Shown in pieces: positions 2,250 to 20,446 of a stretch of 41,184 nt of DNA (positions are counted from its first letter, which is position 1; each line of letters begins with the position of its first letter). The stretch comes from a virus: the IMG/VR virus record IMGVR_UViG_3300036800_000523, positions 1-41,184 of that record. One strand, given 5' to 3'. Position numbers and translations under genes: made by a program. The notes beneath the pieces were generated by a model, which was given only the letters and a program-made list of their open reading frames with translations, was not told where the DNA came from and ran no database searches.

Positions 2250-4720
2250 CTACTCCTTCAGGTGTTGCTTCGCCGACTCCAGGAGGGCCGCACGCAGCTC
2301 CTTGGCCGAATCGGCGTCTTTGTCATGCTCCGCGGCCTTGATCTCTTTTGTGAGGCGCAGGTAGGTCGAGCCGTACCAGTGGCTCAGCTCCGCGCGGCGC
2401 TCCCGATCGTCGTCGCTGATGTTCTCCTTCTCCAACTCCAGCCGGTAGCGCTCACGCACCAGGTTGCGCACCTCGTCGGGCAGCGACAGCCGGAACCGCG
2501 CCGCCTCGGCGTCCTCGACGGTGTGATCCAGCTCCTCCTTTTCACGGATGCCCCGGTCGCTGGTTTTCAGGAAGCGCGACAGGCCGGGCACGCTGCCGAC
2601 GACCTTCTCCCCCGTGGTTTCCCTCTCCCCCAGCCCCTCGGATTTGCCGATCAGCCAGTGCGCCAGCACCGACGCCTGGCCGAACTGGTTGCCGGTCCAC
2701 GAGAGCATGTCCTTGTTGGCGTACCAGCCGCCGGCCTTGAAATCGTCGTCGCTGATGATGTTCCGCCGGCGGAAGTCGTCGTAGGGGTTCTGCCCGCGCA
2801 GGTACTGCTGCCAATTGTTGGCCATTTGCAGCGTGGGGCTGATGTGCGGCGCGTCGGAGTAGCCGGCGTCGAGCACGCCCTGCATCCGGTGCAGCAGCGT
2901 CTCGTCGTCGGTGCCGGTGAGCTTCCACAGCAGCCCGCCCATCAGCCGATTCCACGGGTCGGTCGGGATCAGGAAGTACCGCGCCTTCAATTCACCCTTG
3001 GGGCCGCGGGCCCAGCCGTAGGGGATCACGGTGCCCTTTTGCTTGTCCGACTCCGGCACCGCGGCGAACAGCGCCTTGAGCCCAGCGCCCATCAGGCCCG
3101 CCGCGGCCAGCCGCATGAGGATCTTCGGCAAGGCGCCGCTCAGGCCCCACCGCAGCCAGAAGCCGGCCCGCGTCGTCGGCTCGGTCGCGGCCTCGGCGTC
3201 GGCGCGCAGGAACTGGATGAGGATGTTGCTGTACATGAACACCGGGTTGGTGAGCACCGTGGCCAGGCCCTTGCGCTTGCGGTCGGGGTGCCCCATGAAA
3301 TTGCGCACGCGGTACGCCCGCTCGTGTTCGGGGATGCCCCGCGCGGCCAGCATCTGCCAGCCGGCGATCTTGGGCACGCTCACCACGAAGCTGCCCATGC
3401 CCTCGACGGCGTGCTGCATGTTCTGCATCCACTTCACCGCGGCCCGGATCACGCCCCCTTTCTTCACGGGCTTGTCGCCCAGGCCATAGCGGTCGAGCAT
3501 CCGCGCGAACGTGTCGTGCTCATCGTGGAACTCGAAGTCCATCCACGGCACGTCGAGCGCCTTGGCCTCAAGCATGGCGTCGATCGTGGCGTCGGGCCGG
3601 CGTTGCACCCGGCGGTACGCGATCGGGGCGGCGGCGCGGTACGCCTTGAGGATCTCCCGCAGTCCCACTGGCTTGCCCTTGATGGCGTTGTTCCGCCACG
3701 TGCGTTGGAAGTCACTGAACGTGAGGCCCATCGCCCATCCGACGTTCCACGTCACGTACAGCGGGTGAAAGGGCCGGTAGGTGATGAGGCTCAGCCAACG
3801 CCCCACCGTGGCGAGCATGCCGATGTCGTGATTGGCGAACACCTTGGCCACGTACGGGTCCACCGCGTAGTGGCGCAGCTTGCCGTCCTCGTACACCGGC
3901 AGCCACTCCCGCCCGCGGGGCGGCTTGCCCGGCGGCAGCGGCATCCCGCCCGGGCCGTGCCGCGCGCGGCCCTTGGTGATGTCGGTCGGGAAGTGCCTGA
4001 GCATCATTCTGATGGTCGTGTTCTTGGCCTCCTGAAGATCGTTCATCCGGTTGAGGCTCATCGTCTTCATCACCGTCGAGACGAACGGGTTGGCCACGTC
4101 CTTGAACGTGCCGTGCTGCTGGATGATCGCGTGCGAAATGTGCTCGTCGAGGTAGTCGAGCACCGCGAAGGTCGCGTAGTTGTACTTGTTGGGCTCCAGC
4201 TCCTTTGTCACCTTTTCCCGGCTGTAGGTGCCGACGTCGCCGGCGTGATCGACGGCCTCAAAGATGATGTCGTGGAACGTGGTGATCGCCTTCTCCAGCG
4301 CGGCGTACCGCACCGGCCCCACCTCGCGCTCCAGATCCTTGAGCATCGCCGCGGCCGTCGCCGGCGTGTGCCCCTGCGGGTTGGCCAGGTCCGACCGCTC
4401 CGTCGCCGTGCGGTGGAGCTGCAGGTACTCGCCCAGCTCGGGCAGGCCCATGCCCGCCCGCTTCACCGGCGCAACCACTTCCTCCTCCAGCCGGCGGAGC
4501 ATCAGGTGGTTCGTGTTGTCGCTGTAGGCCAGCTCGCCCAGGGCGTACTTCGCGTTCAGCGCCTCGGGCAGGCGGGTCCCGATTTTCTTCTCGGCCGTCT
4601 TCTGCAAGTCCAGCACCGGCGCGGAGCGGTCGAACAGGATCTGCTTGATCGCGCCGATGATGCTGGTGCGGTTGGTCGCCCGCTCCTTGGCGCGGGCCTT
4701 CAAAATGTCCTCCCCGCGCG
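2250..4720 (-). other. C-terminal large polyvalent-protein-associated region
   Basis: Residues about 3120-3946 carry long helical stretches, then YRPFHPLYVTWNVGWAMG near 3440, a motif style I associate with LPD38-type regions. A hydrophobic helix (KILMRLAAAGLMGAGLKALF) lies near residue 3665, and the tail is charged. The region may anchor the protein in the capsid or conduct it through the membrane; that is inference. Confidence 0.5.
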
Positions 4721-7700
4721 CGTACGCCTCGCGGATGTCCTTGCGCCGGCCGGCTGCCAGCTCCTGCGGCGTGCCCGCCAGCACGTCCTGGAGCGTGAGG
4801 TAGGCGTCACGGAACTCGGCGTGGCGGTCGAGGTGTTCCAGGAACTGCTTGTAGGCCAGCGGGGCGCGGGCCTCGACCTCGCCGGGTGCGTTGAGCAGCA
4901 CGCTCAGCAGCTCGGCGTACAGCTCGCGCGGCGATTCGCGGTACTGGATGTAGCTGGCCTTGGCCTTCGCCTTGTCGTATGGGCTCCACCACTCGCTCAG
5001 CGCGATCAGTTGCTTGCGCAGGGCCTGGTTCGGGCCGACCGCCCCGCGCCACGTCGCCGCCAGGTGCCGGTTCAACTTGGCGATCGAGCCGACGACGTTG
5101 CCGCGGCTGAGCGTCGGCGGGTTGCCGCTGCCGCCCAGCGGCAGCCAATCCTCCAGGTGCCCGACCTCGTGCGCCAGCGCCGCCGCGATCTCGCGTGCGC
5201 CCTTCACCTTCCGGGGGTCGATGCTGATGGTGCCGAAGCCGCCCACGCTCTTGAACTTTCCCGCCACGCTGCCGCGCAGCTTCTTCATCACCGGCGCGCC
5301 GGTCTGCATGATCGATCGGGCGAGCTTCAGCAGCTCGGGCATCTCCATCGGGCGCAGCAGCTTCCGCCCGCCCGCGGCCGCGGGGCCGTGAACGGCCACG
5401 GAGTTGTGCAGGATCGGCAGCGGCGTGGGCTCGCTCACCCGGGAATAGGCCCCCGCCCCCTCGTCGTCCAGGTCCCTCTCCCCTTCGCTCTCCCCCCGCG
5501 CGGGCGTGGCCGCGGCCTTGGCCGGCTCCGTGTCGTTGGCCGCTGCGAGCTGGGTCGTCACGTCGCGGAGCTGCTTCTGCTTGGCCTCCAGGTCGGCGGC
5601 GCGGGGGAAGGGCTTGCCGATCTGCGGCAGCAGCTTCGCCAGGTCGGCCTCGTACACGCGCAGGAGCTGGAGGCTGCGGTCCACCATCCCCTGAATGGTG
5701 GACTGCCGCGCGCGGTACTCGATCGAGCCGACCGACGAGTCGGCGTCGTAGGTGGTGTTCGCGCCGACCAGCACCACGCGGGCGCTGCCGAGTGAGCGGT
5801 AGCCTTCCAGCGGGAAGCCGCGGTAGGTGCCCAGGGGCACGCGCTTGTCGGAGCTGGTGCCGCGCGGCGGGATCGACTCGACGGCCTTGTCCAGGGCGTC
5901 CTGTGCCTCTCCGCGGTCGGCGTAGCTCTTGCCGTCGATCTCGATGGAGAACTTGTCCTCCCCGTGCTTCGTCGCCGTCGCCAGGTCCGGCGCGAGTTTC
6001 GCCCCGACCCCCTTCGCGTCCGTGATCTCACCCCTGAGCTTGGCCGCGTCGTCGCGGAGGCGCAGGGAATCGCGCTGGTGGCGGTTGGCCGCGGCCGTCA
6101 GGTCCTGAACGTCCTTGTCGAGCTGGATCCGCGTCAGCAGCAGCGGGTTGCCCGACGCGATCGCCATGACCTGCGCGGGGCTCAGCTCCTCCCCGTCGTC
6201 CTCGCTGATGGCGCGGGCGATCTTCTTGCCCTCCATGAACTGGTTGATGAACTTGGTCTTCGCGTCCACCGCCTGCCACATGAACGTGTCGAACGAGCCC
6301 TCGGTCACGTAGCGGAAGATGTGGATCTTCCCCGTGGGGTTGGCGTTGCCCTGCCGCCAGCCGCGGCCGTCGCGCTGTTCGACGAACGCCGGCACCCACG
6401 GCACGTCGGCGTGGTGCAGCGCCACGAGGCGCTGCTGCGCGTTGACGCCCGTGCCCAGCTTCTCCGAGCCGCCGATGCCGACCAGCGCGTCGCCCGCGGC
6501 CAGGCGGTCGGCCGCGTCCCTCTTCTGCGCATCGGTCAGGTCGCCGAAGTTGATGATCTTGTCGCGCGGGATGCCGCCCTGCACCAGCTTGTCGATCAGC
6601 GACTCGTAGAAGCTGAAGCCCCCCTCGTTCTGGCTGATGCCCAGGTCCGAAAAGATCATCTGCGTGGTGCCGGGGTGCGCCGCGTGGAACTTGAGCACGT
6701 TGCGGACGATCTGGTTCGTCTTGCTGTCGCCGAAGTCGGGGGCCGTGTGGTCGATGATGCGGTGGTCGAGTGCGCTCTTCCGCGCGTCCATGCTGATGCT
6801 CAGCATGTTGTCGCCCTTCTCGCCGGGGCGCTTCTTCTTCGCCTCCCTGGCCCGGTCCTTGATTTCGTTCAGGTAGCTCGACTGCTCCCTGCTCATAGGC
6901 GCCTTCACGACCTCATCGACGCGCTTGGGCCGCTGGAACCCCGGCATGTCCTTGGCGCGCTGGATGTCGATCACCTGGCGGGCGATCTGCTGCAACTCGG
7001 GCATGTTGGTGAACGCGGCGAAGCGGGTGCTGGGGGCGTAGTCGCCCGTGACCGTGTACTCCATCTTCGTCACGAGCCGGCCGAAGGTGCTGGCCCAGGC
7101 GTCGAACGCCGCCACGCCGCGGCTCTCCAGCTCGCGCATCTGGAGGTAGCGCTGCATCGTGTACAGCTCGGCCATCGTGTTCGTGACGGGCGTGCCCGTG
7201 GCGAACACCACGCCGCGGCCGTTGTTCATCTGCTGGAGCCACTGCGTGCGCATCCACATGTTGGTCGCGCGGTCGCTGCGGCTTTTGGGGATGCCCTTCA
7301 CGCGGTCCTGCTTCGTGTAGACGGGCAGGGACTTGTAGCGGTGCGCCTCGTCCACGAACAGGTGGTCGATGCCCGTCTGCTCGAACGTGACGGCGTTGTC
7401 CTTCTTGCTGTCGATCGCCTCCTTGAGCCGGGCCTCCAGCCGGGCCTTGATCTTTTCCAGCGCCTTCACCATCCGGTTGTCGTTCTTCTTGCCGCGGCCG
7501 CGGCCGCGGCCGTACGCCTGCCCGGTGTCCTCCCCCTCGACGCTGCGCTTCACTTCCTCCAGCTCGGCCAGCTCCTTGCGGATGAACCCCGCCTCGACCT
7601 CCGGGTCCATCGGCAGCATGTCGAGCTGATCGTGCGTCAGCACCACCACGTCCCAATCCCCGGTGGCGATCCGCGCGACCGCCGCCTTGCGCCCCTTCGC

Positions 7701-10700
7701 GTCGAACGAATCGACGGCCAGCACCTTGGCGCTGGGATACAGGGCGCGGGTCTGCTTCACCACGGTCTCGAACGCGGCCTTGATGGTGGCGATCGCCGGC
7801 TTCCGCGCCAGCCCCAGGCGGCGCAGCTCCACCGCGGCCGCGGCCATCGTGAACGTCTTGCCCGTGCCCACCTCGTGGCCGTAGAGCCCGATCCCGGTGC
7901 TGATGGTCTGCCACACCGCGTTCCCCTGGTGGGCGCGGAGGCTGATGGCCGGGTTCATGCCGGGGAACGTGAGGTGCGAGCCGTCGAACTTGACGGGCGC
8001 GAGGTTGTTGAACGTGTCGTTGTAGAAGCGGTGCAGGCGCTGGCGGCGCTCGTCGCCTTCCCACACCCAATCCCGAAATGCCTGCTGCACCTTCTCGACC
8101 TTCTCGTTGGCCGCGGCCGTCGCCTCCTTGTTAACGACACGCTTGTCTTTGTCGCCGGGCACGGGGTCGGTGATGGTCAGGCTCTTGTTGTTGAGCGCCG
8201 CCTCGAAGACCTCGATGAAGCCGGCCCGGTCGGTGCCCCACACCGTCGCGTCGTTGGGGCTGTGCTTGTGGCGATTGAGCCCCGTGTCGGTGTAATTCGC
8301 CAGCCAGGTCCCCTGCTGCGGGATGTAGCGCACCGAGAAGTGTTCGGCGATGCCGCCCATCATCGACTGCGCGAAGTCGCGCACGTCCGACGCCGGCACC
8401 CAGCCCGCCCCCAGGCGCAGGTCGATCTCGTCGTGCGGCACGTCCGCCGGCTGCACCTTGTCCAGGGCCTCGACGTTGGCGGCGTACTGCTTCTCGCCGG
8501 CCGCGGCCTCCCGCGCTTCGAGCAACTTCTTTTTGACGTTGCCGCCCAGGTATTGCTCCGCGCTCTTCCAGCCGCCGGCGGGGTCCCGAAACGCCAGGCC
8601 CGCCTTCACCAGCTCGTCGCCGGCGTCGTCCTGCCCCTTGCCCAGCAGCGCCGCCACGCGTGCGATGTCCACGTGGCCCGTCTCGTTGAGCGTGATCCCC
8701 AGGGCCTCGCCGACGGTGCCGGCTTTCGCGGGGCGGTCGTACCCGCGCACCGTGCTCTTGGTGAACACGTCGGCCTTGGTGGCCTCGCCGGTCTTCGGGT
8801 CGTACGACGCTTCCAGGGCCTGCACCACGGGCGCGTCCGGGTCGTCGGCGAACGCCTGCACGTTGGAGCGCTTGCGCAGCGGCCCGCGCTTTTTCACGAA
8901 CTCGTCGTACGCCCGGCCGAGCTGCTCGCGCTTCCGCTGAACCTCGTCGGCGCTCTTGCTGGCCAGCTCCGCGTCGATCAGCTCGCGCAGCGCGTCGCGC
9001 ACGAGCATCGTGTCGGCGATGAGGGCCAGGTTCTTCTTGTCGCCCTCCGCTTCCACCAGCTCCCCGCCCTGCCGGCGGAAGAGCTTTTTCCCCTGCTTCA
9101 CGTACGCCCCGTCCTTGACGCTCCCCGGCGCGGCCTTCCTCGGCGGCTGGCCCAGGTGCGCGGCGGCGGCGGGCTTGTAGACGCCCGCCGGCAGCCGGTC
9201 GATCGCGTCGGCCAGCCGCTTCTGGAAGTCGGCGGTCCTGCTCACGTGCATGTCGCCGCGGCCGTACAGGCGGCTCTTGCGGTCGAGCGTGCCGAGGATC
9301 TGCTCGGGGTTGTCCGCGAAGTAGGTGTTGACGGGGATCGGCGCGCCGCCATCGGGGTCGGGCAATTCCTTGAGCCCCTGGAAGTCGGGCCCCGCCGGCG
9401 CTTCCCCCTCGCCGCGGCGCTTGAAGATCAGCAGGTCGGTGACGACGGACGTGCCGGCGCTCTTCTCGAACGCGCCTTCGGGCAGTCGCACCGCGGCCAC
9501 CAAGTCGGCCTTCTCCCGCATCATCGCGCGGAAGCGGCCTTCGGCCTTGTCCATCGTGCCGGTGCTGGTGATGAGCGCGACCACGCCGCCCGGGCGGGTG
9601 AGGTCCAGCGTCTTCACGATGAAGTAGTCGTGGATCGGCGCGGTGCGGAGCTGCTTGTACGCCGGGTCGTGGAGGGGATAGTCGCCGAAAGGCACGTTGC
9701 CGATCGCGGCGTCGAAGAAGCCCGGCGGCGCGACGAGCTGCTCGAAGCCCTTCACCTGGACGTTGGCCTCGGGGTAGAGCAGGCGGGCGATGTTGCCGGT
9801 GATCGGGTCCAGCTCCACGCCGGTGAGGCGCGAGCCGTCGCGCATGTCCGGGGGCATCAGCCCGAAGAAGATGCCCGCGCCCATCGACGGCTCCAGCACG
9901 CGGCCCCCGCCGGCGAAGCCCAGGCGGCGCATGCCCTGCCACATCGAGACGGCCAGCAGGGGCGAGGAGTAGTGGGCGTTGAGCGTGGACTTGCGCGCCG
10001 CTTCCCACTCCTCGGGCGTCAAGAGGTCCTTTACATCTTTACTTTCCTGTTCCCACGCGGAGGCTTTGCCTTCGCTCTTGCCCTCCGCGCCCACGGCCGC
10101 GGCCGCGTTGAAGAGCTGCGGGAACCGGCCCCACCCGGAGTAGAGCGCGAGCACTTCCTGCTCGGCGGCCGTCGCCCGCCGGCCCTCGGCCATGACGCGG
10201 CGCAGCGTCTCGATCGCGGCGACGTTCTGCTGGTACTTGGTCCTGGCACCGCCGGCGTCGAGCTTCGCCGCGTCGGTGATGGTGTGGTTGCCCGTCAGGG
10301 CTGGGGCTTGTTCTTGGGCGTCTGACTCAGCGACTTCTCGAACGACGCCTGCTGCTGCTCCCTGCCCAGGCTCCGATCCGCCGGCGTCGGGCTCCCGCCC
10401 TCGCTCTCCGAGTCGGTCAGGTAGATGTGACGCGCCTTCGCGTCCTCCTGCGCCAACTGCGGGTCCGCTCCCTGGCTCACCAGCAGGCTGTAGTGGTCCT
10501 GCGCGTTCTTCTCGGCCACCCGCGCCGCGTTGTCCAGTTGGCCCGCCTGGCTGAGCTGCTGGTGCAGCGTCGGGTAGTGCTGTGCCCAGTGCGCCTTCGC
10601 CTCCCGCGCCCACGGCCCCGCCGGCGGCAGGCCCTCGGCCAGCTTCCGGTAGTGCATCAGGCTCGCGCTGTTCTCGGCCATCGCCCCCCAGTGTACCAGA

Positions 10701-13700
10701 TTCCTGCCCCGGCAAGGGAATTTCCATGAGGCGGCGCACTTCGTCCACCAGCCGCTTGCCCGTCAGGGTCGGCCGGCTGCCATGATCCCCCGCGCCTTGC
10801 CAGAACTTTGGATTGTTCCCGCCCTTGGCCCTCCAACTCTCTTCAGGAGTCGCCCCGTTCGCGCCGCCGTCGATGCCGAACTCCTTGGCGATCCCGTTCT
10901 TCAACGTCTCGTCGTCGGCCCCCGTGCGCCTCAGCGCGTCCCAGCGCTCGGCCGAGCCGGAGACGCCGTGGAGCGCGCCGTGCAGGGCAGTATCGAAGTG
11001 CTTGGTGAGCTTGCTCTCACCCTCACCCCCGCCCCCTTTCTTCTCCAGGTTGTCACGCCCCGACGTATCAGGGGTGGGGGCGCGTGCGCCCCCAGGCTCC
11101 TCGGCCGGCGTCTTTGCGCGGTGCTCCACTTCGACGGTGCCGGTGACACGTTCGATCCCGTGCTGGCCGATGTACCGCTCGGGCACGTACGCACGCACGG
11201 TGGGGTAGCCGCTCTGCTGCGCGCTGAGCGTGCGGTGCGAGCCATCGGCCACCATCAGGCCCCCGCCCTTGGGTCCGGCCACGAGAATGGCCGGCGGCAG
11301 CGCCGCGCGCTGCTCGGGCGTGAGCTTGTTCAGCGCGTCCACCTTCCCCTGGTCCTTGTCGCCGGCGATCAGGCTCGACGGGTCGATCTTCCCCGCCGGC
11401 ACTTCCGCCAGCACGTACTTTCCCTTGCTCATCGACGCGAGCGCTTCGATGGTGCCGGCGTTCTCCGGCTCACCGAACTGCTTGGCGTACCACTCGCCGA
11501 CGGCGTGCGCGTCGGCCAGCTCGCGCGGGTGATTCTTCCCCGGCCCTTCCGCGGAGTCCGCGGTGCCGACCGGCTCCTGCTTGCCCCCTTCGTTCTCCAG
11601 CCGTTCCAGCGGTGCGCGGTTCTCCGCGCGAACGCGGCCGATGATGTCGTCGCCGGCACCGCGGCCCGGGCCGTACATCGAGTCGAGGCGCTGAACCTCC
11701 TGAGCCAGGCTCTCGTGCTTCTGCCGCTCGGCCTTGAGCTGCTCGAGTAAAGCCTGGTTCCCCTTCAGCTCGTCCAGCAGCACCTTGGTCGGCGGGTAGT
11801 TTCGCTCGCCGGTCTGCGCGTCGCGCGGGGCGATGCCGTCGAGAAACTTCCTCACCTGCCGCGCCGCGCCGCCGTCCTTGAGCTTTTCGACGGCGTTGCG
11901 GAGCTGGTCGGTCGTCGCGGTGCCCAGGTCCTGCTTGTTGAGGGACGTGACGCCCGCGCTGTTGATGATCCCGGTGAGTCGCGCACGCTCGGCCGCGTCC
12001 CCCCCTACCGCGGGGGCGGGCGTCTGCACCGCCGCGCCGCCGGGCGGCGGCGGCGTGGTTGGTGAGCTGGGCGCTCCGGGGGTCGTAACAACTGCCGAAT
12101 CGGCGGGCGTGATCTGCGCCCCCACCCCTGCATTACCGGAACCCCTCTCGGCCGGGGGCTGCGCCTCGGGGACGGAAGTTGCCGACGCCGGCGGCGGTGT
12201 CTGGTTGGGTCCACCGTCGCCGGTCGCCGGCTGCCGTCCGTTGTCCCCCGCGGAGCCTGAGGGCCTGCCCTCGGTGGGGGAGGGGGATGTGCCGTTGAGT
12301 GAGCTGAGCGCCGCGGCGCGCGCGGCCATCGTCTTTGCGAACAGTTCCTGGTTGCCGCCGGCGTCGGGGTGCGCCTCCTTGATCTTCTCGCGGAACGCAT
12401 CGCGCACGTCGTCGGCGGTGTAACCTTTTTTCAGGCCAAGGAAGTTTGTGGCGTCTTCGCGGCCCATGCCGACGTCGCCGAACTTTCCGGCCATCCGCTC
12501 GGCGGTCGAGCCGTCGCCGGCGGGGGCGCTGCGGAACGTGTCCCACGCCGCGCGCACGCGGGAGGGGTCGCTGGCCATCGTGAACGCGCCCGCGGCCGCG
12601 CCTTGCAGGCCGGCTTTGAGAATGCGATCGACGTCGAGCGCTTCCTTGCCCCCCGACGCCACGTAGTGCGTGAGCTGGCTGGTGAGGTCCTGCACCGCGG
12701 CCACGCCACCTTGGGCACCGGCGGCGCGGATCGTGTTGGCCAGGTACGTGCGGAGGCCCCGGCTCTGCATCTGCCCCAGCGCCCCGAACTTCATGCCCGC
12801 CACGGCCACCGCGCCATCGATGACCGAGCCGACGCCGGCGGCGAGGCTCGCCTGCTCCTTCGTCTTCCCGTCCTTGACCGCGGCGTCGTACACGCCCTGG
12901 TAGCTCTGGCCGGCGGTCTGTGCGAAGAACTGACTTCCTTCGAGCACGCTGGCCAGCGTCTTGGCGCTCGCGCCCGTCACGCCGAAGAGCGAGCCTCCTG
13001 GAAGCGCCGCCCGGCCGGTCAGCGCGGCGGCGATGAGCTGCGGCGCCATCCGCAAGCCGCCCTCGGTGATCTGTTGGAACGCATCCTGCTTCGTGCTGTT
13101 GGGCAGCAACTGCTCGTAGCGCTGCGCCGATGCGGCCGTGTTCTGACGCATGCCCTCGAAGAAGCCGGTGCCCGCGCTCGCGCCGGGCTTGCCCCCGCCG
13201 AAGCGGTCGGCCAGCGTTTGCCCCGCGCCCTCGACCGCCTGAGCCGGCCCGTACGCGAGGTCGCCGCTGCCCTTGAGCCAGTTGTCCACCCAGCCGTGCA
13301 TGCGGCCGACTTCCACGGGCTGGACCGTTCCGCCCTGGACGGTGAACGGGGGCAGCTTGTCCTCGGGCACCCCCAGGCGGAGCATCTGCTGCTGGACGGC
13401 GCGGTACATCTCCTGGTCGGCCTCGGGGCCGTGGGCGTTGGGGTAGTCGGCCTTCCAGTCCGCGGCCACCTGCTGCGCCATCTGGTCGCGCACCTGGACG
13501 GCGTGATAGAGCGCGTGCTCCATCTTGAAACGGTTGTCGTACTTTTCCGCCAGGGCGGGATCGACCGTCGAGCGCACGTACTCCGCGGCCAGCTCCGGAT
13601 CCACCTCGCGCCCGGGGCGGTTGGCCTTGGCCCACGCCTCGACCTGCGGGCGCTCGCTGGCCAGCGCGGCGTTGCCGAACTGGTCGGCCCACCGCGCCTT

Positions 13701-14090
13701 GGCGTACATCTCCGGCTCAAGAAGCTCCGAGACGATGCCGCCGTGGTGCAGGTCGTGCTGGAAGCCCGCCTGCCCGGTGTCCTCGGGAACGCCGAAGGTG
13801 CTGTTGAGCGTCGGGATCTGCGGGATGGGCTTGGGCTGCTCGGCCGGCAGACCGCCGACGCGATCGGCGGCTTGGAGCGCCGGCACCAGGTTCTGCCCGC
13901 CGGCCCGGGCCGCGTCGAGGTTGAACTTCGCCGCCTCCTGCTCCCACGGGTCCACCTTGGTTTGCAACGACACGCCGTTGCTGTCGCCGGTGATCTCCGG
14001 GGTGGGGCGGTCGGCAGCCGGCGCGGTGGCTCCATTCGCCGCCGGCTGCATCGAAGCCGCCATCTGTGCCCAGGGGTCCTGCTCAGGCAT
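2250..14090 (-). CDS. Giant polyvalent protein (J domain, ParB-like, N6-methyltransferase, SNF2 helicase, metallopeptidase)
   Basis: One open frame of 3,946 codons; GGAG lies 6 bases before the ATG at 14090. Order: residues 1-540 Ala/Gly-rich helical; 541-600 J domain with HPD; 855-975 ParB-like fold; 1265-1560 N6-adenine methyltransferase (LEPSMGAG, NVPF); 2035-2630 superfamily-2 helicase (EVGTGKT, DEAH, QRDGRGWRQGN); a post-helicase helical region; 2945-2995 HEVGH zinc-peptidase motif; 3120-3946 large polyvalent-associated region with a hydrophobic helix near 3665. This is the layout of phage polyvalent proteins related to P1 DarB, which are packaged, ejected with DNA, and protect or remodel it. 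Caveat: codons 1137-1265 are a poor coding frame (Gly/Ala/Arg/Pro-rich, low G/C at third positions), while another frame there encodes the 128-residue gene at 10295-10681. The frame may therefore be two genes, or carry frameshifts. Confidence 0.85.
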   Translation of the reverse strand: MPEQDPWAQMAASMQPAANGATAPAADRPTPEITGDSNGVSLQTKVDPWEQEAAKFNLDAARAGGQNLVPALQAADRVGGLPAEQPKPIPQIPTLNSTFGVPEDTGQAGFQHDLHHGGIVSELLEPEMYAKARWADQFGNAALASERPQVEAWAKANRPGREVDPELAAEYVRSTVDPALAEKYDNRFKMEHALYHAVQVRDQMAQQVAADWKADYPNAHGPEADQEMYRAVQQQMLRLGVPEDKLPPFTVQGGTVQPVEVGRMHGWVDNWLKGSGDLAYGPAQAVEGAGQTLADRFGGGKPGASAGTGFFEGMRQNTAASAQRYEQLLPNSTKQDAFQQITEGGLRMAPQLIAAALTGRAALPGGSLFGVTGASAKTLASVLEGSQFFAQTAGQSYQGVYDAAVKDGKTKEQASLAAGVGSVIDGAVAVAGMKFGALGQMQSRGLRTYLANTIRAAGAQGGVAAVQDLTSQLTHYVASGGKEALDVDRILKAGLQGAAAGAFTMASDPSRVRAAWDTFRSAPAGDGSTAERMAGKFGDVGMGREDATNFLGLKKGYTADDVRDAFREKIKEAHPDAGGNQELFAKTMAARAAALSSLNGTSPSPTEGRPSGSAGDNGRQPATGDGGPNQTPPPASATSVPEAQPPAERGSGNAGVGAQITPADSAVVTTPGAPSSPTTPPPPGGAAVQTPAPAVGGDAAERARLTGIINSAGVTSLNKQDLGTATTDQLRNAVEKLKDGGAARQVRKFLDGIAPRDAQTGERNYPPTKVLLDELKGNQALLEQLKAERQKHESLAQEVQRLDSMYGPGRGAGDDIIGRVRAENRAPLERLENEGGKQEPVGTADSAEGPGKNHPRELADAHAVGEWYAKQFGEPENAGTIEALASMSKGKYVLAEVPAGKIDPSSLIAGDKDQGKVDALNKLTPEQRAALPPAILVAGPKGGGLMVADGSHRTLSAQQSGYPTVRAYVPERYIGQHGIERVTGTVEVEHRAKTPAEEPGGARAPTPDTSGRDNLEKKGGGGEGESKLTKHFDTALHGALHGVSGSAERWDALRRTGADDETLKNGIAKEFGIDGGANGATPEESWRAKGGNNPKFWQGAGDHGSRPTLTGKRLVDEVRRLMEIPLPGQESGTLGGDGREQREPDALPEAGRGPAAGGAVGAGGEGALGTALPDAAPAAQPGGPTGQRGAGGREERAGPLQPAGEPGSGPAVGAGGREGASHLPDRLGERGREPDAGGSEPGQGAAAGVVREVAESDAQEQAPALTGNHTITDAAKLDAGGARTKYQQNVAAIETLRRVMAEGRRATAAEQEVLALYSGWGRFPQLFNAAAAVGAEGKSEGKASAWEQESKDVKDLLTPEEWEAARKSTLNAHYSSPLLAVSMWQGMRRLGFAGGGRVLEPSMGAGIFFGLMPPDMRDGSRLTGVELDPITGNIARLLYPEANVQVKGFEQLVAPPGFFDAAIGNVPFGDYPLHDPAYKQLRTAPIHDYFIVKTLDLTRPGGVVALITSTGTMDKAEGRFRAMMREKADLVAAVRLPEGAFEKSAGTSVVTDLLIFKRRGEGEAPAGPDFQGLKELPDPDGGAPIPVNTYFADNPEQILGTLDRKSRLYGRGDMHVSRTADFQKRLADAIDRLPAGVYKPAAAAHLGQPPRKAAPGSVKDGAYVKQGKKLFRRQGGELVEAEGDKKNLALIADTMLVRDALRELIDAELASKSADEVQRKREQLGRAYDEFVKKRGPLRKRSNVQAFADDPDAPVVQALEASYDPKTGEATKADVFTKSTVRGYDRPAKAGTVGEALGITLNETGHVDIARVAALLGKGQDDAGDELVKAGLAFRDPAGGWKSAEQYLGGNVKKKLLEAREAAAGEKQYAANVEALDKVQPADVPHDEIDLRLGAGWVPASDVRDFAQSMMGGIAEHFSVRYIPQQGTWLANYTDTGLNRHKHSPNDATVWGTDRAGFIEVFEAALNNKSLTITDPVPGDKDKRVVNKEATAAANEKVEKVQQAFRDWVWEGDERRQRLHRFYNDTFNNLAPVKFDGSHLTFPGMNPAISLRAHQGNAVWQTISTGIGLYGHEVGTGKTFTMAAAAVELRRLGLARKPAIATIKAAFETVVKQTRALYPSAKVLAVDSFDAKGRKAAVARIATGDWDVVVLTHDQLDMLPMDPEVEAGFIRKELAELEEVKRSVEGEDTGQAYGRGRGRGKKNDNRMVKALEKIKARLEARLKEAIDSKKDNAVTFEQTGIDHLFVDEAHRYKSLPVYTKQDRVKGIPKSRSDRATNMWMRTQWLQQMNNGRGVVFATGTPVTNTMAELYTMQRYLQMRELESRGVAAFDAWASTFGRLVTKMEYTVTGDYAPSTRFAAFTNMPELQQIARQVIDIQRAKDMPGFQRPKRVDEVVKAPMSREQSSYLNEIKDRAREAKKKRPGEKGDNMLSISMDARKSALDHRIIDHTAPDFGDSKTNQIVRNVLKFHAAHPGTTQMIFSDLGISQNEGGFSFYESLIDKLVQGGIPRDKIINFGDLTDAQKRDAADRLAAGDALVGIGGSEKLGTGVNAQQRLVALHHADVPWVPAFVEQRDGRGWRQGNANPTGKIHIFRYVTEGSFDTFMWQAVDAKTKFINQFMEGKKIARAISEDDGEELSPAQVMAIASGNPLLLTRIQLDKDVQDLTAAANRHQRDSLRLRDDAAKLRGEITDAKGVGAKLAPDLATATKHGEDKFSIEIDGKSYADRGEAQDALDKAVESIPPRGTSSDKRVPLGTYRGFPLEGYRSLGSARVVLVGANTTYDADSSVGSIEYRARQSTIQGMVDRSLQLLRVYEADLAKLLPQIGKPFPRAADLEAKQKQLRDVTTQLAAANDTEPAKAAATPARGESEGERDLDDEGAGAYSRVSEPTPLPILHNSVAVHGPAAAGGRKLLRPMEMPELLKLARSIMQTGAPVMKKLRGSVAGKFKSVGGFGTISIDPRKVKGAREIAAALAHEVGHLEDWLPLGGSGNPPTLSRGNVVGSIAKLNRHLAATWRGAVGPNQALRKQLIALSEWWSPYDKAKAKASYIQYRESPRELYAELLSVLLNAPGEVEARAPLAYKQFLEHLDRHAEFRDAYLTLQDVLAGTPQELAAGRRKDIREAYARGEDILKARAKERATNRTSIIGAIKQILFDRSAPVLDLQKTAEKKIGTRLPEALNAKYALGELAYSDNTNHLMLRRLEEEVVAPVKRAGMGLPELGEYLQLHRTATERSDLANPQGHTPATAAAMLKDLEREVGPVRYAALEKAITTFHDIIFEAVDHAGDVGTYSREKVTKELEPNKYNYATFAVLDYLDEHISHAIIQQHGTFKDVANPFVSTVMKTMSLNRMNDLQEAKNTTIRMMLRHFPTDITKGRARHGPGGMPLPPGKPPRGREWLPVYEDGKLRHYAVDPYVAKVFANHDIGMLATVGRWLSLITYRPFHPLYVTWNVGWAMGLTFSDFQRTWRNNAIKGKPVGLREILKAYRAAAPIAYRRVQRRPDATIDAMLEAKALDVPWMDFEFHDEHDTFARMLDRYGLGDKPVKKGGVIRAAVKWMQNMQHAVEGMGSFVVSVPKIAGWQMLAARGIPEHERAYRVRNFMGHPDRKRKGLATVLTNPVFMYSNILIQFLRADAEAATEPTTRAGFWLRWGLSGALPKILMRLAAAGLMGAGLKALFAAVPESDKQKGTVIPYGWARGPKGELKARYFLIPTDPWNRLMGGLLWKLTGTDDETLLHRMQGVLDAGYSDAPHISPTLQMANNWQQYLRGQNPYDDFRRRNIISDDDFKAGGWYANKDMLSWTGNQFGQASVLAHWLIGKSEGLGERETTGEKVVGSVPGLSRFLKTSDRGIREKEELDHTVEDAEAARFRLSLPDEVRNLVRERYRLELEKENISDDDRERRAELSHWYGSTYLRLTKEIKAAEHDKDADSAKELRAALLESAKQHLKE
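5110..5265 (-). other. Zincin-like metallopeptidase motif in the giant protein
   Basis: ISIDPRKV leads into a helix with AALAHEVGHLEDW near residue 2975. HExxH is the zinc-binding and catalytic signature of zincins, and MPTase domains are recurrent in polyvalent proteins. A third zinc ligand is not obvious from reading. The role, host-protein cleavage or self-processing, is inferred. Confidence 0.65.
6200..7985 (-). other. SNF2-type superfamily-2 helicase domain of the giant protein
   Basis: Motif I is HEVGTGKTFT (near residue 2075), motif II is VDEAHRYKS (near 2247), motif III is ATGTPVTNT (near 2300), and motif VI is QRDGRGWRQGN (near 2576). All ATPase motifs look intact. A conserved follow-on region with a YRGFPLEGY turn comes next, as in other methylase-helicase polyvalent proteins. 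Confidence 0.85.
9400..10298 (-). other. N6-adenine DNA methyltransferase domain of the giant protein
   Basis: The domain opens with the helical lead-in typical of polyvalent methylases (YQQNVAAIETLRR, then SGWGRFP). SAM-binding motif I is LEPSMGAG near residue 1400. Catalytic motif IV is NVPF near residue 1465, in place of the usual NPPY. No ATG or GTG exists in frame near 10298, so this part depends on read-in from upstream, on a CTG at 10298, or on a frameshift. Confidence 0.8.
10057..10075. repeat. Short palindrome, GCGGAGGC-type, one mismatch, inside the giant gene
   Basis: GCGGAGGC-TTT-GCCTTCGC, the same sequence as the copies at 17232 and 21812 apart from one base in the second arm. 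It lies in coding sequence and contributes the GKASA residues ahead of the methyltransferase motif I. Confidence 0.5.
10295..10681 (-). CDS. Nested gene inside the giant frame, TnpV-like helical protein
   Basis: A 128-residue protein in the +1 frame relative to the giant gene, with an ATG at 10681 after a G6 run and a TGA at 10295. Nearly every codon ends in G or C, which is how the real genes here look; the giant frame over the same bases does not. Residues 20-90 (AHWAQHYPTLHQQLSQAG, then VAEKNAQDHYSLLVSQG) form a helical array resembling a small domain seen in polyvalent and ICE proteins. The end is Glu/Gln/Ser/Pro-rich. The TGA overlaps a CTG at 10298 where the methyltransferase frame resumes. 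It may be an independent nested gene or a domain spliced out of frame by sequencing or programmed shifts. Confidence 0.65.
   Translation of the reverse strand: MAENSASLMHYRKLAEGLPPAGPWAREAKAHWAQHYPTLHQQLSQAGQLDNAARVAEKNAQDHYSLLVSQGADPQLAQEDAKARHIYLTDSESEGGSPTPADRSLGREQQQASFEKSLSQTPKNKPQP
11075..11094. repeat. Short palindrome, TGGGGGCGC-type, inside the giant gene
   Basis: TGGGGGCGC-GT-GCGCCCCCA, a perfect 9-bp inverted repeat. It differs by one loop base from the copy at 34447-34466. In frame it encodes GGARAP within a linker. Confidence 0.6.
11165..11525 (-). other. ParB/Srx-like nuclease-fold domain in the giant protein
   Basis: Residues about 855-975. The segment has a KYVLAEVPAGKIDPSSL strand region and, near residue 950, VADGSHRTLSAQQSG. 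This matches the GxHR (here GSHR) motif of the ParB-like fold common in polyvalent proteins. These domains bind or hydrolyse nucleotides or nick DNA; which applies here is unknown. Confidence 0.6.
12290..12470 (-). other. J domain (DnaJ-like) inside the giant protein
   Basis: Residues about 541-600. The helix FLGLKKGYTADDVRDAFREK is followed by the diagnostic HPD tripeptide in KEAHPDAGGN, then a third helix ending in ALSSLNG. HPD is the Hsp70-activating loop of J proteins, so this segment can be expected to recruit host DnaK. Confidence 0.8.
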
Positions 14091-15237: not shown

Positions 15238-15804
15238 TTAGCCGCCGAAGAGGTTGAATTTCTTGTTCTGGTTCAGCCCCGCCAGGCTCGCCGACGACGC
15301 CCCCGGCTGGCTGAGGAGCTGCGCGTACATCGCGTAATTGGGCGCGGTCGGCTGGACGTCGTTCATCACGCCGAGCTGCATGTTCGCGCCCGTCTCGGCG
15401 ATCTGGTTGCTGCGCTGCTGGGCCTGATCCTGCGCGTTCTGATCGACCGCGTTGACGACGGTGGAGTTGCCCAGGCCGCGGGTCGTCAGCCCCGCCTGCC
15501 CCTGGGCCATCTGCTGGCGCAGCATGTTCTGGTTGGCCGTGTTCTGGCTCGCGCCGAACTGCTGGGCGAGGCCGAGCATCTTGTCGTAACGGGCCTTGAA
15601 TTGCTGCTGATAGTTGGCGGTCGCGCCGGTGAGGGCGTTGGCGATCGCGGGGTTGACCCCGCCGCCGCCTCCGCCGCCGCCTTGCCCGTACGTGGACGAG
15701 AGGCGTCCCTGGAACGCCATCGGCTCACCGCCGTTGCCGGTGGTCGCCACGCCGCCGCCGCCCCAGGTCTGGGCCAAACTTGGGAAACTCCCGAACATGC
15801 TCAT
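15238..15804 (-). CDS. Putative virion structural protein with polyglycine run
   Basis: A 188-residue protein; ATG at 15804 with AAGGAG 7 bases upstream. Residues about 42-49 are eight consecutive glycines. Residues 55-150 form a Gln/Ala/Asn-rich amphipathic helix containing a TTRGLGNSTVVNAVDQ segment. I have seen this pattern in small proteins next to podovirus tail and internal-protein genes. It lies between the fibre gene and the internal protein. Position and composition suggest a virion component; no enzymatic motif is present. Confidence 0.65.
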   Translation of the reverse strand: MSMFGSFPSLAQTWGGGGVATTGNGGEPMAFQGRLSSTYGQGGGGGGGGVNPAIANALTGATANYQQQFKARYDKMLGLAQQFGASQNTANQNMLRQQMAQGQAGLTTRGLGNSTVVNAVDQNAQDQAQQRSNQIAETGANMQLGVMNDVQPTAPNYAMYAQLLSQPGASSASLAGLNQNKKFNLFGG

Positions 15805-15828: not shown

Positions 15829-17181
15829 CTACAGCTCCGCGTCGGCCGTCGCGTGGATGATCCCCTTGCTCCCGTCCGTCCCCACGGTGCTGTTGCTGAT
15901 GCACGCGCACTTCTCCGACACGCTCGACACGATCGCAGTCGGGGTCGAGCCCGCCAGCGTCCACTGGCCCGTGACGCCGGCGAACGAGTAGAGCGTGACG
16001 GCGGGCGCGACGCGCATGTGCGTCGGGAAGTACACCATCTGCACGAGCGTGTCGGCGGTGCCCGTCCCCGCGCACACCGTCTGGATGAGCCCCGCGGCGG
16101 CACTGGCCGTGCCCGGCGTGACGCCGTAGGCGTAGCTCTTCCAGTAGTACCGGGCGAGCATCACCGCCTCGATCTCGTAGGGCCGCTGCTCGAAGGGCGT
16201 GGCGATCGAGCCCTCCTCCACCTGGGGCCGCGCGATGTCGATGGTGAACGCCGTGGCCGAGGGGAATGCGAGGATGAGGGACAGGCAGTGGTTCGTCCCG
16301 ATCGTCTTGCCCGCGAGCGTCGGCACCGCGACGGTCACGCTGAAACGCTGGTACGCGGTCGTGAGCGTGAACGGCTGGGTGAGGAAGAGGTTGTTGGCGG
16401 ATCCGCCCGTGCCGAAGACCTGCGTGAGGGTGAGGCTGACGGTCAGGGACGCGGAGGCCTTGGCGTAGAAGCTGATCGTGGCCGTCTTGCCCGCGAGGGT
16501 GCGCACGCCGTCGATCCGCTGCTCCATGCCCGGGTTGGTGCTGGCCAGCGCGTTGCCCTGCACGTGGTGGTAGGAAAACGCCGGCTCGCCCGGCACGGCC
16601 GTCTGCCCGTTCGTGAACGTCTGCTGCGTGATCGACGCGAAGCCGCCGGTGCCGGTGTACGTGATCCAGCGGTCCATGATGTAGAACGCCGTGGCGGTGA
16701 TCGTCTGCCCCGCCCCGAGGGTGAGGCCGCTGGGGAAGCGCTGGGACCAGTCGAAATCGGCGTTAATCAGCTTGTTGCGGAAGCCTTTTAGCGGGTCCTC
16801 CCAGCGCAGGCCCGCCGACTGCGAGCTGTCGGCGAAGAGCTGCTGGCCGTCGCCGCCCGCCGCTAGGACCGCGGCCGTGCCGGTGGGCGTGCCGGTGCCC
16901 GCCAGCAGCGAGCCCTTACCCGTCACGCCCGTCAGCAACGCCGCGGGGGCCTGCTGCAAGGCGAGGCCCCCGCTGACGCGCGTGATCGTGCCCCCCGGCT
17001 GGACGACGCCGGCGATGAGGCCGTCCACCTTCACCTGGGCGTTGCCCGAGCCGTCGTCTTCGAGGCAGGGGTTGCTCGCGGCCAGCGCGAGCTTGGCGAA
17101 CGTCACCGCCGCCGTCTGGACGTCGGCGGTGGCGACGGAGTTTGCGCTCAGGTCCTGCGTGTGAACGCGGGTCGTCGGCAC
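15829..17181 (-). CDS. Tail fibre or receptor-binding protein with carbohydrate-binding-like domain
   Basis: A 450-residue protein. The GTG at 17181 is chosen over one at 17187: AAGGA (17195-17191) is then 9 bases away, and the N-terminus aligns without gaps to the next gene (PTTRVHTQDL against AKTSIRTQDL), a likely shared virion anchor. Residues 1-130 are repetitive beta structure with Gly/Thr/Ala. FRNKLINADFDWSQRF starts a jelly-roll module, common in phage fibres, with DRWITY and AGKTATISFYAKAS. The end (GSKGIIHATADAEL) is also fibre-like. It should project from the tail and contact the host surface. The receptor is unknown. Confidence 0.8.
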   Translation of the reverse strand: MPTTRVHTQDLSANSVATADVQTAAVTFAKLALAASNPCLEDDGSGNAQVKVDGLIAGVVQPGGTITRVSGGLALQQAPAALLTGVTGKGSLLAGTGTPTGTAAVLAAGGDGQQLFADSSQSAGLRWEDPLKGFRNKLINADFDWSQRFPSGLTLGAGQTITATAFYIMDRWITYTGTGGFASITQQTFTNGQTAVPGEPAFSYHHVQGNALASTNPGMEQRIDGVRTLAGKTATISFYAKASASLTVSLTLTQVFGTGGSANNLFLTQPFTLTTAYQRFSVTVAVPTLAGKTIGTNHCLSLILAFPSATAFTIDIARPQVEEGSIATPFEQRPYEIEAVMLARYYWKSYAYGVTPGTASAAAGLIQTVCAGTGTADTLVQMVYFPTHMRVAPAVTLYSFAGVTGQWTLAGSTPTAIVSSVSEKCACISNSTVGTDGSKGIIHATADAEL

Positions 17182-17231
17182 CCGCACCGGTCCTTACAGC
17201 CCCAACGGTGTCCCCGCCGGGAAGCGGGGGG

Positions 17232-18079: not shown

Positions 18080-20446
18080 TCACCTCAATGGACCGCCGGG
18101 CAGCGTGACGGCCGCGGCACGCTCGAAGGCCCACACCGTGGAAGGCACGCTGTTCGACAGTTTCAGGTACGCGGTGTTGCCCCGCCCGCGGGTGAGCACC
18201 CGCGGCTGACGGCCCGGCTGGGTGAACGTGCCGCTGATGGCCGGTGCGGCGGTGAACGCCTCTTCGGCATCCGCGCCCAGCAGCACCGCGTAGTCCACGT
18301 TGGGCGTCTCGCCGGCGGCGCCCAGGTCGGAGCCGAGCACGCACTCCAGGCCAATGACCTGCGCCGTGTTGAAGGCGTCGGCCAGCGCGACCGGCCCGAT
18401 GTACACGTAGCTGCTGATCGGCACGCCGTCGTCGCTGGTGGCGCTGGGGTCGGTCTTGTACACCACGCCATCGACGCCGCCCAGGAGGATCTGCCGGTCG
18501 GTCGGGCCGTCGCCGTCGAAGATGCACGACACGTACGGCCCCACGCTCGCCGGGTACTGCAACTTCCAGAAGCCCTGCGTGCGTTCGTCGAACCACAGGT
18601 GCGTGCCGGGCGTCACGCCGTCGAGCGGCGTGATGAAGATGAAACACCCGTGGCGGTCGCGGTCCCACTGGCACGAGATGTTCACCCTGCTGCGGTCGAT
18701 GTTCTCGAAGAACTTGGCCACCTTCTCCTGTGCGAGGTTCACGGGCTCGGCGTACTGCGTCTGGAAGCCGTGGCCCGGCGTGAAGGCGAAGAAGCCGCCG
18801 TTGCCCACGAAGTAGATGCGGCCGATCGGGTCCACCGTCCAGGCCTCCGCGCCGAGGATGCCCACCGAGCCGCTGACGACGCTGATGCTGCCGTTGGCTC
18901 CGGGGTCGCCCACGCACGCGAACAACGAATGGTCCGTCGAGATGAGCAGGAAGTCGTCGGTGGTGGCGACCAGCGCCGTGACGGGATCCCCGACGCGGCC
19001 GGTGATGGGCGAGTCGTTCAAGGAGATCGCGGTCAGCGCATCGTCCTGCCCGTAGAGCCAGTCGGTGTAGACGCCGGCCCGGCTGAAGTACAGGTTCTGC
19101 TCGAAGCCGGGCTGGTTCGCCAGGATGAGCCGGTCCCGCCAGATGAGGCACAGCCGGCAGCCGGCGGGCACGGTGCCCTTGTCGGCGTCGGCCACGAGGT
19201 CGCTGACGGTCTCCGCGCGGAGGTCCACCACTTTGGTGGAGGTCCCGTCCACGATGATGACTTTGCCCTGCCCGCTGTCGCCCTGGACGATCTGCGTCGT
19301 TTGCAGGCAGTAATCCCCGCCCGTGGGCACGACCCACACGCCGCCGGCACCGTTGGCCTGGTAGATCGTGCCGTTGGCGACGGCGACGAGCTGGAGGTTG
19401 CGGCTGAGGACCGGCCCGAGGGTCTGGATGTAGTTGCCTATGCCGGCCCCGTTGATGGTCCCTTCGCCGCCGGCGGTCGCGCCCTCCACCCCGAACGCGA
19501 AGCTCTGCCCGCCGTTGTTGTAGGCCGAGATGGTGGCCTTGGCGATGATCGTGCCCTTGGTGGGTTCGGCGAAATTCGGGTCGCCATTGCCGACCGCGCC
19601 GACGCGAACCTCCGCCTGGTTGCCCGTCGTGGGCACGATGACGAAGCCGAACGAGAAGTACGTGGTGAGCGCCGCGCCCAGGTCATGGGTGAGGGTTGGG
19701 GTGATGGTGTCGGTCGGCCCCCAGATCTCGACGTACCGTCGGTCGCGCATGCTGACGGACACCGCCAGCGGCGCGGTGCCGGCCGGCGTGGAGTTGCAAA
19801 AGAGCGTGGCCCAGAAGCGCCCGCCCACCGGCAGAAAATTGCTCGCCCCCGAGCCGCTGGTTTTCCCGTCGATGCACGCGACCCCCATGCCCGAGATCGG
19901 GGAGGAGTTGTCGTTCTGCGTGTAGTAGGCACCGCCGGCGAGACGGCCGGCAGCCGGCTGGAAGCCGGGGCTGTCGCTCCCGTTGCTGGCCGAGCCGGTG
20001 AAGACGAACGTGCTGTCGTCCGCCGCGCCCTGGTCGGTGCGGAGCAGGGAAAGAAAACTGCTCGCGTGCGTGCGCCCCTGGTACACGCCCGCGCTGGCGA
20101 CGGTGATCGGCCTGTGCCCGCCGGGATAGAGCTGGTAGTTCACCTGCCACACCGCGCCTGAGTAGGCCACGCCCGTGTACGTCTGCTCGCCGGGGAGGTC
20201 GCCCTGCGTCAGGAGCTGGATGGCCGAGCCGCCGGTCGGCCCGCCCAGCGTGACGCCGCCGCCGTTGAGGCGCGAGAGGCCGGCGCGCTGCCCGCCGCGG
20301 CCGCTGCCGGTGGTGGGCTCGAACGGCACGACGTTCAGCGCGTCGCGGCACGTGCCCTTGGGCTGGTTGGTGAAACCGGCGACGGTGGTGATGCCGTTGA
20401 TCGGGAACGGCAAGGGGATGGGCTTGGGTGCGGCGGCGCGCGGCAT
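18080..20446 (-). CDS. Tail nozzle protein (T7 gp12-like tail tubular protein B)
   Basis: A 788-residue protein; the ATG at 20446 overlaps the TGA of the adaptor gene by one base (TGATG), so the pair is coupled. The opening (INGITTVAGFTNQPKGTCRD) and the long run of beta-strand repeats fit the propeller-like nozzle proteins of short-tailed phages. A late blade reads TTDDFLLISTDHSLFACVGD then AWTVDPIGRIYFVGNGGFFAF. In this family the protein forms the hexameric tail end that holds DNA in and opens on adsorption. Length is close to the T7 homologue (about 800). Confidence 0.8.
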   Translation of the reverse strand: MPRAAAPKPIPLPFPINGITTVAGFTNQPKGTCRDALNVVPFEPTTGSGRGGQRAGLSRLNGGGVTLGGPTGGSAIQLLTQGDLPGEQTYTGVAYSGAVWQVNYQLYPGGHRPITVASAGVYQGRTHASSFLSLLRTDQGAADDSTFVFTGSASNGSDSPGFQPAAGRLAGGAYYTQNDNSSPISGMGVACIDGKTSGSGASNFLPVGGRFWATLFCNSTPAGTAPLAVSVSMRDRRYVEIWGPTDTITPTLTHDLGAALTTYFSFGFVIVPTTGNQAEVRVGAVGNGDPNFAEPTKGTIIAKATISAYNNGGQSFAFGVEGATAGGEGTINGAGIGNYIQTLGPVLSRNLQLVAVANGTIYQANGAGGVWVVPTGGDYCLQTTQIVQGDSGQGKVIIVDGTSTKVVDLRAETVSDLVADADKGTVPAGCRLCLIWRDRLILANQPGFEQNLYFSRAGVYTDWLYGQDDALTAISLNDSPITGRVGDPVTALVATTDDFLLISTDHSLFACVGDPGANGSISVVSGSVGILGAEAWTVDPIGRIYFVGNGGFFAFTPGHGFQTQYAEPVNLAQEKVAKFFENIDRSRVNISCQWDRDRHGCFIFITPLDGVTPGTHLWFDERTQGFWKLQYPASVGPYVSCIFDGDGPTDRQILLGGVDGVVYKTDPSATSDDGVPISSYVYIGPVALADAFNTAQVIGLECVLGSDLGAAGETPNVDYAVLLGADAEEAFTAAPAISGTFTQPGRQPRVLTRGRGNTAYLKLSNSVPSTVWAFERAAAVTLPGGPLR

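What the first reader, a model, noticed from the sequence alone, without database searches (positions are those of the whole stretch)
2250..14090. Ejected giant protein combining a J domain with methylase, helicase and peptidase
Polyvalent proteins with methylase and helicase domains are known, but a clear J domain (HPD at about residue 571) at the N-terminal side is striking. It suggests that the phage recruits host DnaK to the entering protein or DNA, for refolding after ejection, for pulling, or for remodelling host complexes.
Basis: partly seen in the sequence, partly recalled or inferred. Interest (0 to 1): 0.7.

Follow-up and report, generated by a model that had tools for sequence, protein, structure and literature searches.

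The report
Chaperone-recruiting domain in giant phage protein
A phage's giant DNA-protecting protein, of a kind known to be packed into virus particles, carries an extra small domain of the type that calls in the host's Hsp70 chaperone, which may help the giant enter or refold in the new host cell.

Summary
The 3946-aa ORF (2250-14090, -) does hold a J domain, residues ~545-603, HPD at 574-576. Evidence: Pfam DnaJ 3.7e-6 within the record (below the curated cut-off); E=6.5e-9 with a profile of phage J domains built without giants (34.1 bits; best of 1000 shuffles 7.5); 45% identity over 56 residues to a stand-alone phage J protein; modelled helix I-II-HPD-III hairpin matching solved J domains. 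The rest is a DarB-like methylase-helicase plus an HEVGH motif. The C-terminal region resembles a Pelagibacter phage giant encoded between tail genes, and a DarB-like protein of this kind was found in JC1 virions (published). Ejection of this protein is inferred.

The J domain is rare: only this ORF among 273 ORFs of 1500 aa or more from 240 loci (233 loci with the DarB core). Nearest phage kin (TerL 66-68%) keep a giant at the same place, with another payload and no J. Reading: a captured phage J domain recruits host DnaK to the incoming giant for entry or refolding; direct tests are lacking.

Noticed: a conserved gene nested in the +1 frame inside DarB-like giant genes (147 of 233 loci), here at 10295-10681.

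The parts
2250..14090 (-). giant ORF, 3946 aa, DarB-like polyvalent protein with a J domain
13797..14024 (-). N-terminal leader, residues 23-98, shared with the giants of the nearest phage kin (G084, G086)
12777..12854 (-). most hydrophobic N-terminal stretch, residues 413-438 (19-residue mean 1.54); possible membrane segment, inferred
12282..12458 (-). J domain, residues 545-603
12363..12371 (-). HPD motif, residues 574-576
11109..11315 (-). residues 926-994, similar to the ParB-type region of relatives' giants
10295..10681 (-). nested 128-aa ORF in the +1 frame inside the giant gene, weakly TnpV-like; conserved across DarB-like giants
5490..10592 (-). DarB-like core, residues 1167-2867 (phrog_10089)
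9408..10007 (-). adenine-type DNA methylase domain, residues ~1362-1561, motif NVPF at 1465
6189..7943 (-). SNF2-type helicase domain, residues ~2050-2634, GTGKT 2075, DEAH 2247
5157..5171 (-). HEVGH zincin-like motif, residues 2974-2978
2487..5192 (-). C-terminal region, residues 2967-3868, related to a Pelagibacter phage Baldr giant encoded among tail genes
15829..17187 (-). tail fibre protein
18080..21079 (-). tail protein (weak, phrog_376 E=1.5e-4)
21975..23087 (-). major head protein
25684..27558 (-). portal protein
27915..29672 (-). terminase large subunit

Best explanation
It is a DarB-like polyvalent virion protein that has captured a J domain of the kind found in small stand-alone phage J proteins. 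Most likely the giant (about 0.42 MDa, estimated from length) leaves the capsid unfolded with the DNA. Its J domain, which follows the N-terminal leader and helical region, then recruits and triggers host DnaK in the cytoplasm. DnaK clamps the emerging chain, completes its passage and refolds the methylase and helicase that shield and remodel the incoming DNA. Shown here: the J domain, its intact HPD, the DarB core, the gene's place after the tail genes, and relatedness of the ends to other phage giants. Inferred: presence in the virion, ejection, DnaK binding, and the timing.
For: J domain; 45% identity over 56 residues, same C-terminal end, to the stand-alone phage J protein of L090. DarB core. 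Gene order TerL, portal, head, tail, tail fibre, giant on one strand, the same order and strand in kin G084 and G086. C-terminal region matches the Baldr giant that lies between tail tubular B and tail fibre genes. The DarB-like gp69 of podovirus JC1 was found in purified virions with 51 unique peptides (PMC9144972, passages); P1 DarB is packed into the capsid (PMC9024508, passages). A phage J protein, Rki of RB43, does bind host DnaK and needs its J domain to act (PMC3486835, abstract).
Against: No test of DnaK binding. Of five basic DnaJ residues that contact DnaK (R22, K26, R27, K48, K51; PMC8215388) only R22 and K26 seem kept (R563, R567); E568, A585 and M588 sit at the others (mapping uses the E. 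coli DnaJ sequence from memory). No close relative keeps the J domain: not found in the nearest kin nor in any other giant ORF surveyed, so most DarB-like giants enter without one. The single-sequence structure model is poor (pLDDT 57) and finds no J fold.
Confidence: 0.4

Rival explanations
1. The J domain works in the producing cell: it brings DnaK to the newly made giant to keep it soluble and unfolded until it is packed into the head.
For: The protein is very large and DarB-like proteins are packed into capsids. Jumbo-phage DNAJ proteins have been predicted to recruit host HSP70 for folding and assembly (PMC7824862).
Against: 232 other DarB-core loci lack a detectable J domain, so packing does not generally need it. 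Nothing found favours this timing over entry.
Confidence: 0.2
2. The domain is a host-takeover device: delivered at time zero, it diverts DnaK, upsets the heat-shock response or blinds defences that sense infection through DnaJ.
For: Rki of RB43 binds DnaK and stabilises sigma-32 (PMC3486835, abstract). bNACHT25 needs DnaJ to detect phage coat protein (PMC12169576, abstract). Polyvalent proteins carry many host-directed domains (PMC5512222, passages).
Against: Few virion copies would have to affect an abundant chaperone; copy number is unknown. The domain is linked to DNA-protecting enzymes, not to a known host-directed module.
Confidence: 0.15
3. A J fold without Hsp70 function: a retained or structural piece that serves as a protein-protein module.
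For: Three of five contact residues differ (recalled mapping; list). The best structural match is Tim16, a J-like partner in an import motor, Z 9.7. A related small phage protein, L092, reads HTG where HPD is expected.
Against: HPD is intact here, along with the helix II and III core residues.
Confidence: 0.15
4. Chance HPD in a long protein.
For: 197 of 1000 shuffles contain an HPD; Pfam score is under its cut-off.
Against: 34.1 bits against a shuffle maximum of 7.5; 45% identity to a phage J protein, E=1e-15 for the single comparison; pairwise score 120 against a shuffle maximum of 39.
Confidence: 0.03

Closest known systems
DarB-like polyvalent proteins of podoviruses (JC1 gp69, Bcep22 type, SopranoGao, Itty13; phrog_10089)
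   Same: Methylase-helicase core at 35-42% identity, giant size, gene after the tail genes, nested +1 ORF just before the core.
   Different: They have no detectable J domain; N- and C-terminal regions are largely unrelated.
Stand-alone phage J proteins (phrog_9210-like; L090, L091)
   Same: J domain 45% identical over 56 residues (L090), no helix IV, same ending.
   Different: 200-230 aa, separate genes, other N-terminal domain, no methylase or helicase.
Rki of phage RB43
   Same: Phage-encoded J domain; the one functionally shown to engage DnaK (PMC3486835, abstract).
   Different: Small separate protein made after infection; not fused to a DarB-like giant.
Tim14/Pam18-Tim16 of the mitochondrial import motor
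   Same: J or J-like fold placed to recruit Hsp70 to a chain that crosses a membrane (role recalled); best structural match of the model.
   Different: Eukaryotic, fixed part of a translocase; here the domain would sit on the cargo itself. No homology beyond the J fold is claimed.
Partial DnaJ central domain in DNA polymerase of HMO-2011-type phages
   Same: A DnaJ-derived piece inside a large phage enzyme (PMC9038755).
   Different: There it is the CXXCXGXG zinc region, not the J domain with HPD.

Membership tests
J domain (PF00226) | sequence similarity to J domains beyond chance | tested here: met
   note that the Pfam score (18-22.9 bits) stays below the curated 27.8
J domain (PF00226) | HPD motif between helices II and III | tested here: met
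   HPD 574-576, between helices 559-573 and 581-598 in the model
J domain (PF00226) | helical hairpin fold | tested here: met
   alignment-based model, pLDDT about 83-90 in the core, matches J domains. Single-sequence model did not; the alignment contained J domains, which may bias it
J domain (PF00226) | basic residues that position it on DnaK | tested here: inconclusive
   2 of 5 positions basic (list; mapping by recalled DnaJ sequence)
J domain (PF00226) | stimulation of Hsp70 ATPase | not testable with these tools
   needs protein
DarB-like polyvalent protein | methylase-helicase dyad | tested here: met
   phrog_10089 1561 bits; alignment A1
DarB-like polyvalent protein | methylase motif NPP(Y/F) | tested here: inconclusive
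   window has NVPF, the majority form in alignment A3 of relatives; activity unknown
DarB-like polyvalent protein | zincin-like metallopeptidase domain | tested here: inconclusive
   HEVGH motif, short similarity to Baldr 2967-3010, no Pfam match; not all members have it
DarB-like polyvalent protein | packed in the virion and delivered to the cell | not testable with these tools
   shown for the DarB-like gp69 of JC1 in virions and for P1 DarB in capsids
Rki-type phage J protein | small stand-alone J protein | tested here: not met
   J domain lies inside a 3946-aa ORF

The most novel reading that the evidence does not exclude
The J domain is an import-motor recruiter carried by the cargo itself: as the leader and helical region of the ejected giant reach the cytoplasm, its own J domain, just behind them, turns host DnaK into a ratchet that pulls the rest of the roughly 0.42-MDa chain across the inner membrane, a phage counterpart of Tim14 with mitochondrial Hsp70.
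Probability: 0.15. Interest if true: 0.82.

Novelty: new variant of a known kind. Interest (0 to 1): 0.52.

Why it matters
How very large enzymes packed in phage heads cross the tail and the envelope and become active is open. A J domain on such a protein names a host factor, DnaK, and makes the question testable with one point mutation (HPD) and a dnaK-null host. It also shows that polyvalent proteins can pick up chaperone-recruiting domains from small phage J proteins. The conserved nested gene seen on the way would, if expressed, add an unannotated protein to many DarB-bearing phages and prophages.

Tried and rejected
A second J-bearing giant, L054 (HPD near residue 318), looked promising: PF00226 E=0.0021 in its record. 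It was dropped: 7.8 bits with the profile built without giants, the same as an unrelated giant at 7.9, and a pairwise score of 26 that lies inside the shuffles. It was nevertheless one of the seven rows of alignment A4 used for the second structure model.

Close relatives of the N-terminal 1000 residues and of the C-terminal region were sought in viral contigs and none found. TerL gave kin, two short contigs first, then longer ones. A final scan for kin of the other payload gave only the two genomes already held. The single-sequence structure model was too poor to use. Global profile alignment of the N-terminal 1000 residues to kin failed; a local one found the leader. An ARAGORN tRNA call inside the giant (9142-9222, 4-base anticodon) was taken as spurious. 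A programmed frameshift was considered for the nested ORF and is less likely than a separate gene because of its conserved start and ribosome-binding site, but it is not excluded; in Sinorhizobium phage PBC5 (L051, L264) the upstream part reads in the nested ORF's frame.

Papers: passages only of PMC11654794, PMC7824862, PMC9038755, PMC6918029, PMC5512222, PMC9414467, PMC5313236, PMC7504290, PMC12619734, PMC9024508, PMC9144972, PMC8215388, PMC7159879; abstract and outline only of PMC3486835 and PMC12169576. All other papers were seen only in search listings.

Full report
What is there. The window is a virus record of 41184 bases. One ORF, 2250-14090 on the minus strand, encodes 3946 residues. 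Residues 1167-2867 match the DarB-like antirestriction family phrog_10089 with 1561 bits; helicase (GTGKT 2075, DEAH 2247) and methylase (NVPF 1465) motifs are present, and an HEVGH motif stands at 2974. No Pfam family is found in residues 2880 to the end.

The J domain. PF00226 matches residues 550-581 at E=3.1e-3 on the whole protein, 1.6e-4 on a 117-aa piece and 3.7e-6 as a one-record search. All are below the curated cut-off. phrog_9210 matches residues 513-597 at 7.8e-7. A profile built from five small phage J domains, without any giant, finds it at E=6.5e-9 for 20000 sequences. Its best domain score is 34.1 bits; the best of 1000 block shuffles is 7.5 (444 shuffles gave a reported score) and the next best giant 7.9. 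The nearest sequence among the J domains held is that of a 335-aa ORF in another DarB-bearing virus (L090): 25 of 56 residues identical without gaps. In a search of PDB sequences most of the 16 matches up to E=10 are J proteins, best E=0.0015.

Structure. AlphaFold2 on the single sequence gave pLDDT 57, with helices at 529-539, 544-551, 559-573 and 580-599, and no J match. With six J domains aligned, the core rose to pLDDT 83-90, helices 544-551, 559-573 and 581-598 with HPD in the loop. Foldseek then lists mainly J domains or J-containing chains among the 50 shown of 136, best E=0.022 and none below 0.001. VIA-align 2 gives Z 9.7 to Tim16 (2guz_B) and 7.7 to Rbj (6jmg_B), 49 of 241 chains at Z 5 or more. 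The alignment itself held J domains, so this is support, not independent proof. There is no helix IV.

How rare it is. PF00226 was searched in 80 virus records with the DarB core and 5 phage records (50 and 35): 7 of 85 have a match at E of 0.1 or less, 5 over the cut-off. Six of the seven lie in separate ORFs of 199-335 aa. The seventh, in a giant (L054), did not survive controls. Locally, 273 ORFs of 1500 aa or more from 240 loci were scored (121 gave a score), and only the window's is above 8 bits. 233 loci hold the DarB core, 205 of them distinct; 158 have at least 700 residues upstream of the core, so some N-terminal ends are cut off.

Kin of the phage. TerL finds eight loci, including G083, G084 and G086 at 66-68% and G087 and G088 at 44-49%. 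No J domain is found by PF00226 at E of 1 or less in 9 records: 8 of these kin and the record of L104. G086 has a 3854-aa giant and G084 a 4470-aa one, on the same strand downstream of TerL, built of ParB, ddrB-ParB, Strawberry-notch type helicase and LPD38 domains, with a methylase in G084. The window's giant shares with them only a leader (residues 23-98) and a weak ParB-type region. So the slot is conserved and the payload is exchanged. The window's residues 3022-3868 match a 2329-aa protein of Pelagibacter phage Baldr (21.7% identity, E=6e-26 in a six-protein comparison) encoded between tail tubular B and tail fibre genes.

How it may work. J domains trigger Hsp70 ATPase and place Hsp70 where it is needed; their HPD is essential (PMC8215388). 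DarB-like gp69 of JC1 is in the virion (PMC9144972). P1 DarB enters the capsid through an N-terminal signal, as that paper studied (PMC9024508). Joining these, the giant would arrive with the DNA, and DnaK recruited by the J domain would complete entry or refold the enzymes. The rivals, assembly aid, host takeover and a J fold without Hsp70 function, are not excluded. Only two of five basic contacts seem kept.

What is in print. The main text of the polyvalent-protein survey (PMC5512222) holds neither 'DnaJ' nor 'J domain' (its supplements were not read). Searches for polyvalent proteins with DnaJ, phage with J-domain and DarB, phage with DnaJ domain and virion, phage-encoded J-domain protein with DnaK, ejection protein with DnaK and J-domain with polyvalent and Hsp70 listed no paper whose title or passages I saw describe a J domain in a DarB-like giant. 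The library lacks most subscription journals. Known phage J proteins are separate: Rki of RB43, DNAJ proteins of jumbo phages, moraphages, small DnaJ-domain ORFs in AXL3 and PW916.

A nested gene in the giant. Over codons about 1125-1262 the coding signal moves to the +1 frame. There a 128-aa ORF, 10295-10681 minus, weakly resembles TnpV (PF14198, E=2.8e-4, below cut-off). A profile grown from it hits 149 places in 148 loci. Of these, 148 hits in 147 of the 233 core loci lie wholly inside the giant ORF and in its +1 frame, just upstream of the methylase; the one exception is L254. When the small ORF's codons were resampled synonymously, the giant frame should stay open in 14.6 of 118 distinct regions; it is open in 118 of 118, and in 34 of 34 against 0.3 expected where locus GC is 0.55 or less (dropped: L254, L103, L104, L001, L051, repeats, and contig ends). 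For the window alone the chance of openness is 0.58, so its own frame is uninformative. All 119 distinct regions have an in-frame start codon upstream of the domain, 116 an ATG. Of 63 with ATG 6-9 codons upstream (repeats included), 60 have a Shine-Dalgarno-like sequence against 15.8 expected. In 48 close pairs (not independent) differences fall 331, 296 and 733 on the small ORF's codon positions 1, 2 and 3, and residues differ at 483 of 3326 sites in its frame against 935 of 3278 in the giant's. Both frames therefore look translated in this family. This supports the giant being one polypeptide through this stretch, with the J domain and the methylase on the same chain. No annotated gene covers it in SopranoGao, Mwe-JY07 or Atu_ph08, and two searches listed no paper about it that I could recognise from the listing.

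Verdict. It is a rare fusion of two known parts, a new variant of a known kind, with a testable but untested mechanism.

Noticed in passing
window 10295-10681 (-), inside the giant ORF: A 128-aa ORF in the +1 frame, weakly TnpV-like, conserved as a nested gene in 147 of 233 DarB-core loci, with the giant frame kept open far beyond chance (118 of 118 against 14.6 expected) and conserved ATG and ribosome-binding site in about half. Unannotated in the three phage records read for it.
   Followed up: yes
window 2250-14090 against G084 (L116) and G086 (L110): Phages with 66-68% identical terminase keep a giant gene at the same place but with a different payload: Strawberry-notch type helicase, ddrB-ParB, LPD38.
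   Followed up: partly
L089, L090, L091, L093, L094: DarB-bearing viruses also carry small stand-alone J proteins: 5 of 85 records over the Pfam cut-off. Some share an N-terminal domain and end in the J domain.
   Followed up: partly
L092 (also L064 19536-20168): A related small protein has its J-like part in the middle and reads HTG where HPD is expected.
   Followed up: no
window 1457-1531 of the protein, motif at 1465: Methylase motif is NVPF, not NPPF; NVPF is also the majority form in one group of DarB-like relatives.
   Followed up: no
window 30175-30882 (-): Sigma-factor-like protein upstream of TerL (phrog_351, E=2.9e-7).
   Followed up: no
window 15238-15804 (-): 188-aa ORF next to the tail fibre gene with a weak match to a muramidase domain (PF22115, E=0.0033, below cut-off).
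   Followed up: no
L051 and L264 (Sinorhizobium phage PBC5): Here the upstream 2185-aa orf33 runs in the frame of the nested ORF and the DarB core is a separate, overlapping ORF: a natural split, a frameshift or a sequencing slip.
   Followed up: partly
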